64,000 nucleotides of DNA, taken from the NCBI RefSeq assembly GCF_002968285.2, contig NZ_CP134400.1, positions 4,030,001-4,094,000 on the forward strand, read 5' to 3'. The position numbers and the translations under genes are program-made. The notes beneath the pieces are model-generated. The model was not told the origin of the DNA. It was given only the letters and a program-made list of their open reading frames with translations, and made no database searches. This document shows positions 14,484 to 61,443 of the stretch, piece after piece. How positions within the stretch are numbered: position 1 is the first letter of the stretch; each line of letters starts with the position of its first letter. The DNA is from Mycobacterium sp. ITM-2016-00318 (GTDB lineage Bacteria; Actinomycetota; Actinomycetes; Mycobacteriales; Mycobacteriaceae).

Positions 14484-14532
14484 GATTTCGGCGCGGTAAC
14501 CGACGCTGAGCGCACGCCAGCGCGCCGAAATC
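14484..14532 (-). repeat. inverted repeat at the 3' end of udgB
   Basis: Perfect 12-base arms GATTTCGGCGCG (14484-14495) and CGCGCCGAAATC (14521-14532) flank 25 bases. The second arm overlaps the udgB stop codon (14531-14533). A hairpin in this position could end or protect the udgB transcript. It is built like the other gene-end hairpins of the window but has a different sequence and a longer loop. Confidence 0.6.
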
Positions 14533-15367
14533 ACTGGAGGCCGGCCAGTTCAGCGGCCCGGCCGAAGACGTCGTCGAGCATCGGCGGGGTGAGCTTGCCG
14601 GTGAACGTGTTCTGCTGGCTCGGGTGGTAGACGCCCATCAACGTCACCTCGCCGTGCGGCGTCTGCAGCGTGGCCGTCGCCCCGTGCCCGAACTTGGGCA
14701 CCGGGCGGGCATGCGAACCCCCTGCGACGCGCACCATGTCCAGCACCGCGCGCCACGCGAAACCGCCGAGCGCGATGATCACCCGCACATCTGCGCCTGC
14801 GAGCCGCCATTCGGCGTCAAGCCACGGCGCGCACGTCGCACGTTCCGCCGGTGTCGGCGCGTTCGCCGGGGGTGCGCACCGCACGGCCGGGATGATGCGA
14901 AGGCCGTTGAGCGCCAAGCCATCTGCGGCGTCCACACACAGCTCCTGGTTGGCCAGTCCAGCGCGGTGCAGAGCGGCGAAAAGGAAGTCACCTGACCGGT
15001 CGCCGGTGAACACCCGGCCGGTCCGGTTGGCGCCGTGCGCGGCAGGCGCCAGCCCGATCACCATGACCCGCGGCCGTGCCGACCCGAAGCCCGTCGAGGG
15101 CCTACCCCAGTACGGCTCGCTCGCGAAGGACTTCCGCTTCTCGACCGCTACCCGTTCCCGCCACTCGACCAGCCGCGGACAGGCCCGGCATACCGACACC
15201 TCGGCGTCGATCTGTTCGACCGACTGCGCCGCCTCGGCCATGGACGTCACCTCCGCCGCCGTCTGCGCCACTGCCGTGGCCCGCGTCGCAGGATCGCCCG
15301 GCCAACCCGAGCCCGCGGGCACCGGTGAGTCGAACTTCTTGCCGGTGCGAGGATGGGCGAGCTTCAC
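14531..15367 (-). CDS. udgB: uracil-DNA glycosylase, family 5 (UdgB)
   Basis: This enzyme removes uracil, and other deaminated bases, from double-stranded DNA. About 278 residues follow from the GTG at 15367 ([15 protein letters not shown]), chosen because longer starts run into the divergent tap promoter. Four cysteines (C60, C63, C164 and C179) fit the 4Fe-4S cluster of families 4 and 5. Motif 1 is [13 protein letters not shown], with Ala where other UDGs have an acidic catalytic residue, as expected for family 5. Motif 2 is [12 protein letters not shown]. Position matches Rv1259. Confidence 0.92.
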
Positions 15368-15443
15368 CGTTCCACTGTGCCTGCGCACGCAAATCCATCG
15401 CCGTCCGGGCCCGGCCGCTGTTAGATTCCGCTGGAGATAACCC

Positions 15444-16679
15444 ATGACCAACAGCAAGCGCGGACCGCTCTTCGTCATCCTGTTCGCCGCGCTGATGGCC
15501 GGCGCGGGCAACGGCATCTCGATCGTCGCATTCCCGTGGCTGGTGCTGCAGCGCACCGGATCCGCCCTCGACGCGTCGATCGTCGCGATGGCGGGCACCA
15601 TTCCCCTTCTCGTGGCGACGTTGATCGCCGGTGCGGCGGTGGATTACCTCGGACGCAAACGGGTTTCGATGATCTCCGATGCGCTGTCGGCGCTGTCGGT
15701 GGCCGCGGTTCCGGTGCTCGCGCTGACGTTCGGCGTGCATTCCGTCAACGTCGCCGTGCTAGCCGGGCTCGCCGCGCTCGGCGCCCTGTTCGACCCCGCA
15801 GGTATGACCGCGCGCGAGACGATGTTGCCCGAGGCGTCGCAACGCGCCGGTTGGACGCTGGATCGCGCCAACAGCGTGTACGAGGCGGTGTTCAACCTGT
15901 CCTACATCGTCGGGCCAGGTGTCGGCGGCCTGCTGATCGCCACACTCGGCGGCGTGAACACCATGTGGGTGACGGCCTGCGCGTTCGTGTTGTCCATTCT
16001 GGCCATCGCGACGCTGCGACTGGAGGGGGCGGGCACTCCGGACCGCGCTGCACTGCCGGAGGGGGTCTGGGCAGGCGTCGTCGAGGGCCTGTCATTCGTG
16101 TGGCACAACAAGGTGCTGCGCACCCTTGCGATCGTCGACCTCGCCGCGACCGGCCTCTATGTGCCCATGGAGTCGGTTCTCTTCCCCAAGTACTTCACCG
16201 ATCGCAACGAGCCGGCTCAGTTGGGCTGGGTCTTGATGGCACTGAGTGTCGGCGGGCTCGTCGGCGCGCTCGGTTATGCGGTGCTGTCGAAGTATTCGCG
16301 CCGACGCACGATCATGCTCACCGCGGTGCTGACGCTCGGCGTCGCGATGACGATCATCGCGTTCCTGCCCCCGCTGCCGCTGATCCTGGTGCTGTGCGCC
16401 ATCGTCGGGTTCGTCTACGGCCCCATCGCGCCCATCTACAACTACGCCATGCAGACCCGTGCGCCCCAGCACCTTCGCGGGCGCGTCGTCGGCGTGATGG
16501 GCTCGCTCGCCTACGCCGCGGGACCGCTCGGTCTGGTGCTGGCGGGTCCCCTGGCCGACGCTGCCGGCTTGCACGCGACGTTCCTGGCATTGTCCCTGCC
16601 GATGCTGCTGCTCGGCGTCGCCTCCGTTTTTCTGCCTGCGCTCCGCGAACTGGACAGCGAGCCAACGCATACCCCGTAG
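15444..16679 (+). CDS. tap: MFS multidrug efflux pump, Tap-like
   Basis: This is a major-facilitator protein of 411 residues with about 12 membrane helices. The loop motif [10 protein letters not shown] after helix 2 is the MFS signature. By order (next to udgB) and length it is the counterpart of M. tuberculosis Rv1258c (Tap), a proton-driven exporter of tetracycline, aminoglycosides and other drugs. GGAGA precedes the ATG. The 76-base gap to the divergent udgB does not show a clear WhiB7-type element, so I make no claim of WhiB7 control. Confidence 0.88.
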
Positions 16680-24195: not shown

Positions 24196-24256
24196 CGCGA
24201 AATGGCATTCCGGCAGCGAAACTGCGAGTGGCGACCTGCCGGAACGCAATATCGCG
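24196..24256 (-). repeat. 61-bp gene-end hairpin element, copy 1
   Basis: Two 21-base arms (24196-24216 and 24236-24256, 18 of 21 pairing) flank a 19-base loop. Read on the minus strand it begins CGCGATATTGCGTTCC and ends CCGGAATGCCATTTCGCG. It starts 5 bases after the stop of the minus-strand acyltransferase gene. Two further copies with the same geometry are at 48702 and 61383. Confidence 0.75.
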
Positions 24257-24261
24257 AAAGG

Positions 24262-25413
24262 TTAGGAGGGGCGGACGCGGGTGAAGCGGTGCAGCAGCCA
24301 GGCCAACGGCACCGTCACGATCAACGTCACCACGAAGAGCATCGGCATGGATCCGGTGTAGATGTGGAAGTGCAGGATCTCGACCATCACGAGTTCCATC
24401 GTCAGCAGATGAATCAGGAAGATCTCGTAGGAGATTTCGCCGAGGAAGACCATCGGACGGCTGGCCAACCCACGCGCGTACCAGCCTCGGTCACCCAGCG
24501 CGAGCGGCGCGACGACAAGCGTCGCGATCACGGCGTAGAACACCGCCTTCCAGATCGCAGGGGCCAAGGCATAGGGCGACGTGGTCGGCTCCCCCGCGAT
24601 CGGTGTCGAGGCGATGAAGTAACTCGCCACCGCAACGGGCAGCACTGCGAACGCATAACAGCGCACACCAATCACGGACAGCGCCGCGAGCAGCATGCCC
24701 CCGACGAACCAGATCAGGTATGTCGGCAGCCACAAGCGCGCCCCGTCGGGCAACCCGTTGACGGTGTGGACGAAGATCAACCACGCCGGTGTCACCGCGG
24801 TCAAGAGCGCGAGACCGACAAGCAACAGCAGCGGGCGCCACCGGCGCCGACACAGAACCGTCAGCAACAGCCAGGCCAACAGCGGCAGCACCGCATAGAA
24901 CGCGACTTCGACCGCCAGACTCCACATCTGGGTCAGCGCCTGGTGCAGATAGGAGTACATGTACTGGTCGGTGTAGATCTGCGTCAGCGTGAGATTGCGA
25001 AACAGTCCGATCCACGTGTGGCCGGGATTGGGCCCCGCCGTGCGGAAGTGATACACGAGATAGGCCGCAAGCACGGTGACGACGTAGGCAGGCATGATGC
25101 GCCGCACCCGGTGCCAGGCGTAGCGACGCGCCGACGGCCAATCACCCTCGCCCGCAGCCGCTTTCACCCATGGCCGGAAGAGCAGATAACCGGACAGGAC
25201 GAAGAAGATCGGTACCCCGATCTCCATGCGCGCATAAACCAGGCCGGCGTATCCGTGCGTGTACTTGCCGGTGGTGTACGCGGCGTGCGTGGCCAGCACC
25301 AGAATAGCTGCGACGGCGCGGATTCCGGTGAGCGATGCCACCCGCTCAGGGGCCGCGACGGACTCGAGACCGCCCTGCGCCTCCGAGCCGGCGACACCCT
25401 TGGAGGCGGTCAT
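24262..25413 (-). CDS. membrane acyltransferase, acyltransferase-3 family
   Basis: This protein has 383 residues and about ten membrane helices. The N-terminal motif SLTGIRAVAAILVLATHAAY contains the family's conserved His, and the VPIFFVLSGYLLFRPW segment follows. Such OafA-like enzymes transfer acyl groups to surface sugars or glycolipids at the membrane. It corresponds to Rv1254. The start overlaps the deaD stop by 4 bases, so translation is coupled. A gene-end hairpin element lies 5 bases beyond its stop. Substrate unknown. Confidence 0.88.
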   Translation of the reverse strand: MTASKGVAGSEAQGGLESVAAPERVASLTGIRAVAAILVLATHAAYTTGKYTHGYAGLVYARMEIGVPIFFVLSGYLLFRPWVKAAAGEGDWPSARRYAWHRVRRIMPAYVVTVLAAYLVYHFRTAGPNPGHTWIGLFRNLTLTQIYTDQYMYSYLHQALTQMWSLAVEVAFYAVLPLLAWLLLTVLCRRRWRPLLLLVGLALLTAVTPAWLIFVHTVNGLPDGARLWLPTYLIWFVGGMLLAALSVIGVRCYAFAVLPVAVASYFIASTPIAGEPTTSPYALAPAIWKAVFYAVIATLVVAPLALGDRGWYARGLASRPMVFLGEISYEIFLIHLLTMELVMVEILHFHIYTGSMPMLFVVTLIVTVPLAWLLHRFTRVRPS

Positions 25414-27784: not shown

Positions 27785-27822
27785 GTTTAATCCACCCCCC
27801 AACGGGTATGACGCCAGCGTCA
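27785..27822 (+). promoter_or_regulatory. SigF-type promoter with an adjoining palindrome
   Basis: GTTT (27785-27788), a 15-base spacer and GGGTAT (27804-27809) match the mycobacterial SigF consensus GTTT-N15-17-GGGTA. Immediately downstream TGACGC-CA-GCGTCA (27809-27822) is a perfect inverted repeat that could be an operator covering the start site. Transcription would begin near 27816-27819, upstream of the GTG at 27862. Confidence 0.6.
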
Positions 27823-27861
27823 ATGCCAAGCGGCTACTGCCGTCACCGAGGAAGTGGGACT

Positions 27862-28680
27862 GTGGAAGATGCCTTGAGGGACATGTGGCGCTCGATCGCC
27901 ACCTTCGCCCCTAAACTCGTTGTATTCGTTTTGATCTTGGTGATCGGCTGGATCGTCGCACGTGTCGTCGCGAAGGTGATCGACAAAGTACTCGAGCGGG
28001 TCGGATTCGACCGGGCCGTCGAACGTGGAGGCATTCGAAGGGCCTTGCAGAACAGCAGATACGACGCATCGACGATCGTGAGCAAGATCGTCTACTACGC
28101 GCTCCTGCTGTTCGTCTTGCAGCTTGCGTTCGGCGTATTCGGCCCGAATCCGGTCAGCGCACTGCTGAGCGGCGTCATCGCGTTCCTGCCGAAACTGCTC
28201 GTGGCTCTGGTGATCATCGTTGTCGCAGCGGCGATCGCGGCGGCCGTGCGCGATATCGTGTCCAACGCGCTCAGCGGTCTCTCGTACGGCAGGCCCCTGG
28301 CCACCGCCGCCAGTGTCGCGATCCTCGCGCTCGGCATCATTGCGGCCCTCAACCAGGTGGGTATCGCGCTTACCGTGACACTGCCTGTCCTCATCGCCGT
28401 GCTCGGCACGGTGGGCGGCATACTCATCGTCGGCGTAGGCGGAGGCCTGATCAAGCCGATGCAGCAGCGGTGGGATGACTACCTCTCCCGGGCCGAGCGC
28501 GAAGGACGCGAGTTCCGCGACCGCAGGGCCGGGCGACCCGCAGACACAACGGTCGTCCCCGCAGGTGCCGTGCCCTCATCCGAGCCGTCGAGTCGCGCTA
28601 TGGCCGGGCCGAACCCGTCCACGCCAATCGCGGGTTCCACTGCGCAGACGTCGCGTCCGGAGGGCCGGCCGCTGAGCTGA
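27862..28680 (+). CDS. MscS-like TM-helix-repeat membrane protein
   Basis: This protein has 272 residues. Several long hydrophobic segments include LVVFVLILVIGWIVARVV followed by an amphipathic stretch (DKVLERVGFD), the conserved TM-helix repeat found in proteins related to small mechanosensitive channels. The C-terminal 80 residues are charged then Pro/Ser-rich and probably cytoplasmic. The GTG at 27862 (VEDALRDMWRS) is chosen because AGGAAG precedes it and the SigF-type promoter start lies upstream of it, whereas an earlier start at 27808 would lie within the promoter. Whether it gates ions is not shown. Confidence 0.8.
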   Translation: MEDALRDMWRSIATFAPKLVVFVLILVIGWIVARVVAKVIDKVLERVGFDRAVERGGIRRALQNSRYDASTIVSKIVYYALLLFVLQLAFGVFGPNPVSALLSGVIAFLPKLLVALVIIVVAAAIAAAVRDIVSNALSGLSYGRPLATAASVAILALGIIAALNQVGIALTVTLPVLIAVLGTVGGILIVGVGGGLIKPMQQRWDDYLSRAEREGREFRDRRAGRPADTTVVPAGAVPSSEPSSRAMAGPNPSTPIAGSTAQTSRPEGRPLS

Positions 28681-28685
28681 CCTCT

Positions 28686-28748
28686 CGCCGAAACGGACAA
28701 TTGGGCGACGACACGCCGCGACATCGCGCCCAATTGTCCGTTTCGGCG
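28686..28748 (+). repeat. perfect 22-19-22 gene-end hairpin
   Basis: Arms at 28686-28707 and 28727-28748 are perfectly complementary over 22 bases (CGCCGAAACGGACAATTGGG and two more), separated by 19 bases. It starts 5 bases after the stop of the MscS-like gene and ends 47 bases before the nuclease-helicase start. The geometry is nearly that of the 61-bp elements, but the sequence differs. Confidence 0.8.
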
Positions 28749-47449: not shown

Positions 47450-47594
47450 GTCTTCAGGCTCCTTGGGCAGAGAGGTTTTCCGTGGTCGAAACTAGCGCAC
47501 CGGCGAGTTCCCGAATCGGGCGGTCCGCAACCGTCCGCGCGTAGCATTGTCCGGGGCCGAATCGGGCCTGCGCTGCGACAGGAGGTCACCGGAG

Positions 47595-48695
47595 ATGCCT
47601 TCGTTCCGCGGCGCTCTGCCTCCCGCCCTTCGGCCTGCGCGAAGCAGGCACAGCCACGACGCGAAGTCCACCCACGTGCCGGTCGCACGGGCGATGGTCG
47701 ACTGCGCCATCTACGTCGACGGTAAGCGGCTACCCGGCAAGTACACCCATGCCGCGGCGCTGAACAAGGTCCACGAGTTGGGATCCGAGGGCAGGAACGC
47801 ATTCGTGTGGATCGGCCTGCACGAACCCGACGAACACCAGATGCAGGCCGTCGGGGACGTGTTCGGGTTGCACGAACTGGCCGTCGAGGATGCGGTGCAC
47901 GCACACCAGCGGCCGAAGCTGGAGCGCTACGACAAGACCCTGTTCATGGTTCTCAAGACGGTGAACTACATCGAGCACGAATCGGTGGCCAAGGCCAGGG
48001 AGATCGTCGAGACCGGCGAGATCATGGTGTTCGTCGGCGCCGACTTCGTGGTGACGGTCCGCCACGGCGAACACGGCGAACTCGCCGGGGTGCGACGCAA
48101 CCTCGAAGCCTCACCCGCTCTGCTCAAGCTGGGGCCCTACGCGATCATGCACGCGATCTCCGACCATGTGGTGGACGGCTATCTCGACGTCACCGATCTG
48201 ATCGAGACGGACATCGACACGATGGAAGAGGACATCTTCTCGCCCGTCACCCACACCAACATCGAGTGCATCTACCTGCTCAAGCGGGAAGTCGTCGAAC
48301 TGCGCAGGGCCGTCAACCCGTTGACCCTGGCGCTGCAGCGACTCCACACCGACCACAACGACCTCATCTCGGTCGAGGTGCGGCGCTATATGCGCGACGT
48401 GCTCGACCACAACATCCAGGCCTCCGACCGCATCACGAGCTACGACGAAATGCTCAGCTCGCTGGTGCAGGCCGCCCTCGGCAAGGTCGCCATGCAACAG
48501 AACGTCGACATGCGCAAGATCTCGGCGTGGGTGGCGATCGCGGCTGTGCCCACGGCGCTGGCGGGCATCTACGGGATGAACTTCGAGCACATGCCCGAGC
48601 TGCAATGGACCTGGGGCTACCCGGCCGTGCTCACGGTGATGTTCTGTGTGTGCTTCCTGCTGTATCGCACCTTCCGGCACAGCCACTGGCTCTAG
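47595..48695 (+). CDS. corA: magnesium/cobalt transporter CorA
   Basis: This homologue of the CorA Mg2+ channel has 366 residues, the length I recall for Rv1239c. A large cytoplasmic N-domain (FVWIGLHEPDEHQMQAV) leads to two C-terminal membrane helices, the first ending in the invariant selectivity motif YGMNFEHMPE. The ATG at 47595 is chosen because AGGAGG lies 12-13 bases before it; a start at 47547 would lack this. A 61-bp gene-end hairpin follows 6 bases after the stop. Divergent from mdh. Confidence 0.95.
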   Translation: MPSFRGALPPALRPARSRHSHDAKSTHVPVARAMVDCAIYVDGKRLPGKYTHAAALNKVHELGSEGRNAFVWIGLHEPDEHQMQAVGDVFGLHELAVEDAVHAHQRPKLERYDKTLFMVLKTVNYIEHESVAKAREIVETGEIMVFVGADFVVTVRHGEHGELAGVRRNLEASPALLKLGPYAIMHAISDHVVDGYLDVTDLIETDIDTMEEDIFSPVTHTNIECIYLLKREVVELRRAVNPLTLALQRLHTDHNDLISVEVRRYMRDVLDHNIQASDRITSYDEMLSSLVQAALGKVAMQQNVDMRKISAWVAIAAVPTALAGIYGMNFEHMPELQWTWGYPAVLTVMFCVCFLLYRTFRHSHWL

Positions 48696-48701
48696 ATCAA
48701 C

Positions 48702-48762
48702 CGCGAATTTGCGTTCCTGCAGGCCCTCTCTCGCACTTCCTCTGCCGGAATGCAATTTCGCG
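48702..48762 (+). repeat. 61-bp gene-end hairpin element, copy 2
   Basis: Arms 48702-48722 and 48742-48762 (18 of 21 pairing) with a 19-base loop. It begins CGCGAATTTGCGTTCCTGCAG and ends CCGGAATGCAATTTCGCG. It starts 6 bases after the corA stop and ends 5 bases before the convergent SUFU stop at 48768, so it could serve both genes. Confidence 0.78.
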
Positions 48763-48767
48763 AGAAT

Positions 48768-49349
48768 CTAACTGGGCGCTGAGGCCTTGCGGTTCGGGTC
48801 GAGCACGTCGACGCCGTCGCTGCGCCACGCCTCGCGCATGGCCTCGGCCCCTTTGAGCCGCACCCACGCTGCCTCCGTCGGCGTGATCGGAATGGCCGAA
48901 AGCACGACCACCGGATCGTGGGGGGCGGGCAGCTCGACATCGCCGATGTCGCTGCGGCCCAACAGGAATGCGGTGAAGGCAGCACCATCCCACAGCGCAG
49001 ACCCGAGGTCGACCAGCGCATCGGGAGCCAGCACCAACCCCTCGACGGCGGGTGCGGCCGCCAGCACCGCCACGCTGCGCGCCAGGCCCGTCGGCGTCGG
49101 GACGCGCAATGCGACGGCCACCTCCGCGCGGGGTCCGCGCACCGTTCTTCCGGCGGTGGCGAACTCGGCGGGATCGGTCATCGGCTCGCGCGAACAGCCC
49201 AGCGAGACATAGTGGATGACGCCGTCGGCATCGGGTCCGAACCGCAGCACGTCGAACGACTGCGTGCCCAGAAACGTCACGGTCGCGGTGTCGGGCTCGG
49301 AAGCGAAGTGTGCGAGCAGGCGAGCGCGAACATCCGCAAGGACTGTCAC
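48768..49349 (-). CDS. suppressor-of-fused (SUFU) domain protein
   Basis: This protein has 193 residues and a bacterial SUFU-like domain (PF05076 type): [43 protein letters not shown] and the late [18 protein letters not shown]. Bacterial SUFU proteins have no settled role; some act as immunity proteins against toxins, others as adaptors. The start overlaps the sugC stop by 4 bases, so it is translated with the trehalose importer. M. tuberculosis has no counterpart between sugC and corA. Confidence 0.82.
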
Positions 49350-60179: not shown

Positions 60180-60230
60180 CCGAGCCCGGGCGCGGATCCG
60201 CCCGATCGGCTCCGCCTACACTCGGCGGTG

Positions 60231-61373
60231 ATGTCAGAACGCCGTACTGAGCTGGAATCCGCGATCCGCACCGGCCTCGCCAAGGTGATCGACCCCGAGT
60301 TACGCAGGCCGATCACCGAGCTCGGCATGGTCAAGAGCGTCGATGTGGAAGCCGACCGCGGCGTGCACGTCGGGATCTACCTGACCACCGAGGCGTGCCC
60401 GAAGAAGGCCGAGATCTCCGAGCGGGTGGCCGCAGCGGTCGCCGATGTGCCCGGCACCGGCGCGGTGAAGGTCAGCCTCGATGTCATGAACGACGAGCAG
60501 CGCACCGAGCTGCGTAAGCAATTGCGTGGCGACGCCCGCGAACCCGTGATCCCGTTCGCCCAGCCCGGTTCGCTGACGCGGGTGTATGCGATCGCATCCG
60601 GCAAGGGCGGAGTCGGCAAGTCCAGCATCACGGTCAACCTCGCCGCGGCGATGGCGACCCGCGGGCTGACGGTCGGCGTGCTCGACGCGGACATCTACGG
60701 GCATTCGGTTCCGCGGATGATGGGCACCACCGATCGGCCCACCCAGGTGGAGTCGATGATCCTTCCGCCGATCGCCCACGACGTGCGGGTGATTTCGATA
60801 GCGCAGTTCACCCAGGGCAATACGCCGGTGGTGTGGCGCGGCCCCATGCTGCACCGCGCGCTTCAGCAGTTCCTCGCCGACGTGTACTGGGGCGATCTGG
60901 ACGTGCTGCTGCTCGACCTTCCGCCGGGCACCGGCGACGTCGCGATATCGGTGGCGCAGTTGATCCCCGGTGCCGAGATCCTGGTGGTGACAACGCCGCA
61001 ACTGGCCGCAGCCGAGGTCGCCGAACGCGCTGGTGCGATTGCGCTGCAGACCCGTCAGCGCATCGTCGGGGTGGTCGAGAACATGTCCGGGCTCGTACTG
61101 CCCGACGGCACCACGATGGCTGTGTTCGGCGAAGGCGGCGGCCGTCAGGTCGCTGAGAGGCTGACGACCGCGGTCGGCGCGGATGTTCCGCTGCTCGGAC
61201 AGGTGCCGCTGGATCCCGCGCTCGTTTCCGCGGGCGACTCCGGCGTGCCGCTGGTGCTCAGCGCGCCGGATTCGGCCGCGGGCAAGGAGTTACGCGGCAT
61301 CGCCGACGCGCTGTCGTCCCGCAAGCGCGGGCTTGCGGGGATGTCGCTGGGCCTCGACCCCAGCGGCCGCTAG
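60231..61373 (+). CDS. mrp: iron-sulfur carrier ATPase Mrp/ApbC
   Basis: This P-loop ATPase has 380 residues and loads Fe-S clusters onto client proteins. An N-terminal MIP18/DUF59-like domain (residues 1-90, ITELGMVKSVDVEADRGVHV) precedes the deviant Walker A SGKGGVGKSS and DADIYGHSVPRMMG. The CxxC often seen in other family members is replaced by other residues. It corresponds to Rv1229c. TACACT lies 9 bases before the ATG, so a leaderless mRNA is likely. A 61-bp gene-end hairpin starts 9 bases beyond the stop. Confidence 0.92.
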   Translation: MSERRTELESAIRTGLAKVIDPELRRPITELGMVKSVDVEADRGVHVGIYLTTEACPKKAEISERVAAAVADVPGTGAVKVSLDVMNDEQRTELRKQLRGDAREPVIPFAQPGSLTRVYAIASGKGGVGKSSITVNLAAAMATRGLTVGVLDADIYGHSVPRMMGTTDRPTQVESMILPPIAHDVRVISIAQFTQGNTPVVWRGPMLHRALQQFLADVYWGDLDVLLLDLPPGTGDVAISVAQLIPGAEILVVTTPQLAAAEVAERAGAIALQTRQRIVGVVENMSGLVLPDGTTMAVFGEGGGRQVAERLTTAVGADVPLLGQVPLDPALVSAGDSGVPLVLSAPDSAAGKELRGIADALSSRKRGLAGMSLGLDPSGR

Positions 61374-61382
61374 GTACTTCGC

Positions 61383-61443
61383 CGCGAGACTGCCCTCCTG
61401 CAGGCCTCTACTCGAAGTTTTCCTGCCGGAATGCCGTTTCGCG
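61383..61443 (+). repeat. 61-bp gene-end hairpin element, copy 3
   Basis: Arms 61383-61403 and 61423-61443 (16 of 21 pairing) with a 19-base loop. It begins CGCGAGACTGCCCTCCTGCAG and ends CTGCCGGAATGCCGTTTCGCG. It starts 9 bases after the mrp stop. The loop (about CTCTACTCGAAGTTTTC) also resembles those of the other copies, so the whole 61 bases are conserved, not just the arms. Confidence 0.75.

What the first reader, a model, noticed from the sequence alone, without database searches (positions are those of the whole stretch)
61383..61443. A 61-bp hairpin element recurs at gene ends with fixed 21-19-21 geometry
Three copies (24196-24256 minus, 48702-48762 plus, 61383-61443 plus) share arm and loop sequence. 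All start 5-9 bases after a stop codon and are oriented with the upstream gene. Conservation covers the 19-base loop as well as the arms, so it is more than a random terminator. It could be a dispersed family acting as a transcript end, RNA-stability stem or protein/RNA target.
Basis: seen in the sequence. Interest (0 to 1): 0.72.

Follow-up and report, generated by a model that had tools for sequence, protein, structure and literature searches.

The report
Nuclease-linked mobile hairpins in mycobacteria
A short DNA hairpin that sits just behind stop codons in a mycobacterial genome belongs to a scattered repeat family whose copies also bracket a gene for a homing-endonuclease-like protein, which points to a partnership between a nuclease and its own private repeat.

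Summary
In detail: three 61-bp, 21-19-21 palindromes lie 5, 6 and 9 bases behind stop codons. The interpretation falls short. Genome-wide there are 36 distinct places, and 21 of the 24 best lie 3-14 bp from a stop codon. Some hairpin pairs about 1 kb apart bracket one gene. Its protein joins an AbiEi-like part to a Vsr/EDxHD homing-endonuclease-like domain. Among 80 mycobacterial loci chosen by protein alone, 75 carry the hairpin within 150 bp of the gene, 52 on both sides (E <= 0.1). A second nuclease subfamily carries a different hairpin: flank similarity in 25 of 29 loci against 0 of 58 controls, and model R1 finds no flank hairpin there. High-scoring copies from 21 other genomes covary strongly (16 of 21 pairs changed on both sides, 0/500 shuffles); 20 copies in this genome do not. 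Best reading: a REP/RAYT-like two-part selfish system driven by a nuclease instead of a Y1 transposase, which this genome lacks. The pairing is shown; binding, cutting and mobilisation are inferred. Caveats: hairpin-rich G112 and G121 lack a close nuclease; no clean insertion junction was found.

The parts
61383..61443 (+). hairpin copy 1 (R1 family): arms 61383-61403 and 61423-61443, loop 61404-61422; 9 bp behind the stop of the upstream gene; left arm partly decayed
   Evidence: at the same gene end an R1-type hairpin is seen in G047, G148, G013 and G078, other hairpins or none in the other loci examined (30 loci)
48702..48762 (+). hairpin copy 2 (R1 family) between convergent genes, 6 bp and 5 bp from their stop codons
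   Evidence: intact in G047, decayed remnant in G148
24196..24256 (-). hairpin copy 3 (R1 family), 5 bp behind the stop of the minus-strand gene
   Evidence: intact in the syntenic place of G047
60228..61373 (+). gene upstream of copy 1: ParA/Mrp-type P-loop NTPase with FeS-assembly domain (host gene, not part of the element)
47547..48695 (+). gene upstream of copy 2: CorA-like Mg2+ transporter (host gene)
48768..49349 (-). convergent gene behind copy 2: SUFU domain (host gene)
24262..25413 (-). gene upstream of copy 3: acyltransferase (host gene)
28686..28748 (.). hairpin of another family with the same architecture: perfect 22-bp arms, 19-nt loop, 5 bases between it and the stop of 27808..28680 (+)
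14484..14532 (.). hairpin of a further family (arms GATTTCGGCGCG), overlapping the stop codon of 14531..15601 (-) by two bases; similar hairpins behind the copy-1 gene in G056, G154 and G159

Best explanation
The 61-bp palindrome is the dispersed, non-autonomous half of a two-part selfish system. The other half is a chromosomal gene of about 0.9 kb, bracketed by the same palindrome, for a protein that joins an AbiEi-like DNA-binding part to a Vsr/EDxHD (homing-endonuclease-type) nuclease domain. Proposed mechanism: two protein molecules bind the two arms of their cognate palindrome, as AbiEi-fold proteins bind paired 23-bp inverted repeats; the nuclease domains cut in or near the spacer; repair or recombination at the break copies either the bare hairpin (solo element) or the whole hairpin-gene-hairpin unit into new sites. 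Insertions survive mainly just behind stop codons, where they do no harm and may serve as terminators. Each nuclease subfamily has its own hairpin sequence. SHOWN: family, gene bracketing, subfamily specificity in two subfamilies, palindromy kept through paired changes across species, variation of occupied sites between species, units in different genomic contexts. INFERRED: binding, cutting, nuclease-driven copying, and the order of events between solo hairpin and unit.
Against: G112 and G121 reach the match cap (36) but have no close nuclease, and the flanks of their best homologue show other palindromes; 11 genomes with 20 or more matches have a best homologue weaker than 1e-104, though three of them (G042, G051, G134) were among those whose unit flanks I looked at. 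Same-genome match between solo hairpins and unit flanks is weak (permutation p 0.02, own genome best in 0 of 7). No target duplication seen by eye and no clean before/after junction: the place behind the CorA gene in G148 is a decayed remnant. Two of the seven hairpin pairs first fetched bracket other genes. Five of 80 loci lack the R1 hairpin. The genus-wide correlation is not corrected for phylogeny. Covarying copies were picked by a structure-aware model and fitted to it, and the shuffle control does not keep relatedness. Arms of units fit direct duplication better than nested insertion overall. No relative on phage records or viral contigs, and one distant plasmid-collection hit, so movement between cells is not shown. 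No activity has been measured.
Confidence: 0.64

Rival explanations
1. Host-selected transcript end or RNA-stability stem: the hairpin acts in mRNA as terminator or 3'-end protector, and the nuclease genes merely have the same 3' element.
For: 21 of 24 own-genome copies within 3-14 bp of a stop codon, 0 of 24 inside genes, 9 of 24 between convergent stops; strong folding.
Against: No covariation among 20 own-genome copies; no T-run behind the window copies; 70 of 80 nuclease loci also carry the hairpin UPSTREAM of the gene; two nuclease subfamilies carry different hairpins; the same gene end holds different hairpin families or none in different species.
Confidence: 0.17
2. Operator sites: the AbiEi-like protein is an autorepressor that binds the palindrome next to its own gene, and dispersed copies are a regulon or decoys; the nuclease domain serves defence.
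For: AbiEi and Rv2827c bind inverted repeats in their promoters (PMC7319586, passages); the upstream hairpin ends a median 31 bp before the matched gene start.
Against: Dispersed copies sit behind stop codons (21 of 24), where promoters are not expected; the downstream hairpin is unexplained (57 of 80 loci); match counts and occupied sites vary widely between species.
Confidence: 0.08
3. Passenger model: hairpins are moved by another enzyme (Y1 RAYT or an IS transposase) and the nuclease gene is cargo.
For: Hairpin-rich genomes without a close nuclease exist (G112, G121). Two hairpin-rich genomes, G013 and G051, do have Y1 matches (1 and 2). Transposases other than Y1 were not searched.
Against: Y1_Tnp (PF01797) is absent from this genome and found in only 20 of 146 genomes; the two genomes with 8 Y1 matches each (G002, G094) have no R1 match. 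The nuclease gene fills the space between the hairpins in the typical unit, and subfamily and hairpin sequence go together.
Confidence: 0.11

Closest known systems
REP/REPIN elements with RAYT (Y1 HUH) transposases
   Same: Short, extragenic, palindromic, dispersed repeats; an enzyme gene with the same repeats beside it; each enzyme with its own repeat family (PMC3116915, passages read)
   Different: The enzyme is an AbiEi-like plus Vsr/EDxHD nuclease, not a Y1 transposase, and this genome has no Y1 match; one 61-bp palindrome with a conserved 19-nt loop
EDxHD homing endonucleases (I-Bth0305I) and Vsr
   Different: AbiEi-like DNA-binding part, chromosomal, linked to dispersed palindromes; introns and inteins were not searched for
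AbiEi / Rv2827c antitoxins
   Different: Carries a nuclease domain; space between the hairpins is filled by the one gene
MITEs / Correia-type elements (recalled)
   Same: Terminal inverted repeats, non-autonomous look, dispersed
   Different: No target duplication seen; no transposase partner identified
Stem-loop family Myt-1 of M. tuberculosis (72 bp, 75 members)
   Same: Dispersed stem-loop family in a mycobacterium (PMC2267715, passages read)
   Different: Sequence not compared here; no gene partner in the passages read

Membership tests
REP/REPIN-RAYT | repetitive, extragenic, palindromic element | tested here: met
   36 places, 0 of 24 examined inside genes, palindrome
REP/REPIN-RAYT | associated Y1 (HUH) transposase flanked by the repeats | tested here: not met
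   PF01797 absent from own genome, in 20 of 146 of the genus sample; the flanked gene is AbiEi-REase
REP/REPIN-RAYT | one enzyme lineage, one repeat family | tested here: met
   two subfamilies with different hairpins; other own paralogues suggestive
EDxHD homing endonuclease | Vsr/EDxHD catalytic fold | tested here: met
EDxHD homing endonuclease | conserved E, D, H, D residues | tested here: met
   D229 and H246 invariant, E196 and D256 at 90% or more in 54 sequences; equivalence judged by order and fold, not superposed residue by residue
EDxHD homing endonuclease | site-specific cleavage that drives spread of its own gene | not testable with these tools
   needs biochemistry
AbiEi antitoxin (AbiE type IV TA) | AbiEi fold | tested here: met
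AbiEi antitoxin (AbiE type IV TA) | cognate nucleotidyltransferase toxin in the operon | tested here: inconclusive
   space between paired hairpins is filled by one gene; neighbours outside were not screened
intrinsic terminator | hairpin close behind a stop codon | tested here: met
   21 of 24 within 14 bp
intrinsic terminator | run of T behind the hairpin | tested here: not met
   none behind the three window copies
MITE | target-site duplication | tested here: inconclusive
   none seen by eye in the flanks of 20 copies; no clean empty site
Rfam families | match at gathering score | tested here: not met
   0 matches in the window

The most novel reading that the evidence does not exclude
Mycobacteria carry a separate class of mobile DNA in which a homing-type nuclease fused to an antitoxin-like DNA-binding part, not a transposase, recognises a private palindrome, splits it with its own gene and scatters bare copies behind stop codons. 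In several units the outer arms of the two flanking hairpins are near-perfect complements while the inner arms are diverged (the outer pair is the single best of six arm pairs in 15 of 60 units, although direct-copy pairings sum best overall), as expected if the gene was inserted into the loop of a solo hairpin. Many unexplained mycobacterial intergenic hairpin families would be the tracks of such nucleases.
Probability: 0.4. Interest if true: 0.92.

Novelty: new variant of a known kind. Interest (0 to 1): 0.8.

Why it matters
It would give a large mycobacterial protein family, whose listed members are named hypothetical proteins and which has 14 matches in this genome, a function, explain where a class of intergenic hairpins comes from, and show that REP-like partnerships between an enzyme and a private palindrome arose a second time with a nuclease in place of a transposase. 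It also warns against reading such hairpins as ordinary terminators. The core claim can be tested directly with purified protein and short DNA.

Full report
OBSERVATION. Each folds far better than shuffles. The right-arm pattern has 5 matches in the window against 0.07 expected and 43 in the whole genome against none for the reversed pattern. Twenty copies align over 61 columns without gaps, with invariant C29-G32 in the loop. Rfam has nothing in the window.

FAMILY AND PLACEMENT. A covariance model from the 20 copies (R1) gives 36 distinct places at E <= 0.01 in the 5.46-Mb genome (strands collapsed by me; 150 of 1978 first-look candidates scored). In the 24 best, read with 1.5 kb of flank, 21 lie 3-14 bp from a predicted stop codon, 0 lie inside a gene, and 9 fill the gap between two convergent stops (gene prediction by a simple codon-usage script trained on the window). 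Four of these 24 are the hairpins of the two own units described below. R1 matches occur in 23 of 41 genomes of a mixed sample, all 23 of the same genus and none among 16 from other genera, and in 127 of 148 genomes of the genus sample. Counts are capped at 36 scored candidates per genome and include both strands, so they are an index, not copy numbers.

HOW TIGHT IS THE LINK. Eighty loci were fetched by protein similarity alone (the best 80 of 105; one from a record named only Actinomycetes, the rest mycobacterial names). R1 at E <= 0.1 finds a hairpin within 150 bp upstream in 70, downstream in 57, on both sides in 52, on at least one side in 75; 11 hits lie elsewhere. Those 300 bases per locus are 5% of the sequence searched. 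Without any model, similarity between the 220 bases before and behind the gene reaches 25 in 55 of 78 loci (two skipped for short flanks) against 0 of 145 distal pairs of the same loci. A smaller earlier set gave 26 of 43 at 18 or more against 1 of 43 (one contig-end locus there, L128, was misplaced). The own downstream flank is the best match of the own upstream flank among 102 loci in 32 cases, and in the top five in 57.

ONE NUCLEASE, ONE HAIRPIN. The own genome has 14 matches to the protein. Several paralogues carry inverted repeats in their flanks, with sequences of their own. The decisive test was a second subfamily, seeded with own paralogue L094 (46% identical to P0001): 64 of 146 genomes have it at E <= 1e-80. 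Of 30 loci, one was truncated; 25 of 29 share flank sequence at score 20 or more against 0 of 58 controls. Their arms (CGAGTTCTGCACCAGGGTCGT type, varying) differ from R1, and R1 finds nothing in their flanks: its one weak hit, in L094 itself, is inside the gene.

PALINDROMY AND VARIATION OF SITES. Among 55 high-scoring copies (54 distinct) from 21 other genomes, 98% of pairs are standard, 16 of 21 pairs have changes on both sides, and no shuffle of 500 reaches this. Two of the 55 flank a nuclease unit (L108). The species variants differ as pairs, such as CGAAATGG/CCATTTCG, CGAAATTG/CAATTTCG, CGAAACGG/CCGTTTCG. Within this genome 20 copies show no covariation. I read this as selection on active copies in the element's own life cycle, followed by decay at the insertion site. 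Caveats: the 55 were picked and fitted by a structure-aware model, and the shuffles do not keep relatedness. At the gene end of hairpin 61383, by eye in 30 loci, relatives have the same family (G047, G148, G013, G078), other families (G056, G154, G159; G087), an unassigned palindrome (G107) or none. At the place of the own unit (G000:C1:1901580-1902606), by eye in 30 loci, relatives show closely spaced convergent genes (10 loci, 2-28 bp; one, G148, with bases like a hairpin end), a solo R1 hairpin (G047, G130, G042), other families, or longer unrelated sequence. G148 has a decayed remnant at the 48702 site. The 102 loci fall in 35 flank-context groups (linked by upstream or downstream homology), and proteins 75-85% identical lie in different groups in 10 of 78 pairs; of the 8 printed, three are within one genome (L139/L140, L159/L162, L090/L091).

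ARCHITECTURE OF UNITS. In 60 units with both hairpins (chosen as told under Tried and rejected) the single best-matching arm pair is the two outer arms in 15, direct copies in 13 and 12, inner arms in 5, arms of one hairpin in 5 and 2, and ties in 8. Summed, direct copies fit best (29 of 60). In a handful (for example L091, L130, L192, L179) the outer arms score 22-23 of 26 and the other pairs far less. That is expected if the gene entered the loop of a solo hairpin, or leaves a hairpin when lost. In G047 the solo hairpin at the place of the own unit resembles the outer arms of that unit, but only a few bases decide.

CO-OCCURRENCE AND ITS LIMITS. The match count correlates with closeness of the best homologue (Spearman 0.51, n=147 of 148; mean 22.5 in the 24 genomes with E exponent 104 or more, 5.4 in the 27 without a match at 1e-80). 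Phylogeny is not corrected. G112 and G121 are rich in hairpins without a close nuclease; either the gene was lost or the model is incomplete. Same-genome matching of solo and unit hairpins is weak. Y1 transposases cannot be the general mover: absent here, present in 20 of 146 genomes (G013 and G051 among them), and the two genomes with eight Y1 matches each have no R1 match.

MECHANISM. AbiEi and Rv2827c bind pairs of 23-bp inverted repeats (PMC7319586, passages read), and I-Bth0305I appears to dimerise on a target of nearly 60 bp (PMC3943268, passages). A protein that joins such parts and is bracketed by 61-bp palindromes with 21-23-bp arms fits dimer binding to the arms and cutting near the spacer. 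Spread by break repair, and the stop-codon placement as harmless landing place, are inferred. The closest working analogue is REPIN/RAYT (PMC3116915, passages); membership fails on the enzyme. My odds: association about 0.95; the nuclease acting on its palindrome about 0.75; nuclease-driven dispersal about 0.64.

Noticed in passing
window 28686-28748: Perfect 22-bp palindrome with 19-nt loop of a different family, close behind the stop of a mechanosensitive-channel-like gene; gene and hairpin are missing from the syntenic stretch of G047.
   Followed up: partly
window 14484-14532: Hairpin with arms GATTTCGGCGCG overlapping the stop codon of a uracil-DNA-glycosylase-family gene; similar hairpins occur behind another gene in G056, G154 and G159.
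   Followed up: partly
L261, L268, L270, L271 (behind an oxidoreductase-like gene, named by recall): A larger palindromic insert (ends GCGAGCGTGCGTGT and its complement) occupies the place where other genomes have R1 or other hairpins: the gene end is a hotspot.
   Followed up: no
L103, behind a partial paralogue (G000:C1:3608065-3608526): Hairpin with 23-bp arms (GCGAGCAGACGCAAAAGTACCCC, one mismatch) and 14-nt loop behind a diverged paralogue.
   Followed up: no
G020 (L089) and G021 (L088): A metallo-beta-lactamase-fold-like gene (named from its sequence by recall) is also bracketed by R1 hairpins; in G021 the nuclease unit sits directly beside it.
   Followed up: partly
G002 and G094: Genomes with 8 Y1 transposase matches each and no R1 hairpin match.
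   Followed up: no
L094 downstream flank: In L094 the reading frame appears to run into the 3' hairpin, so that the hairpin arm would encode the last residues and the stop (read by eye).
   Followed up: no
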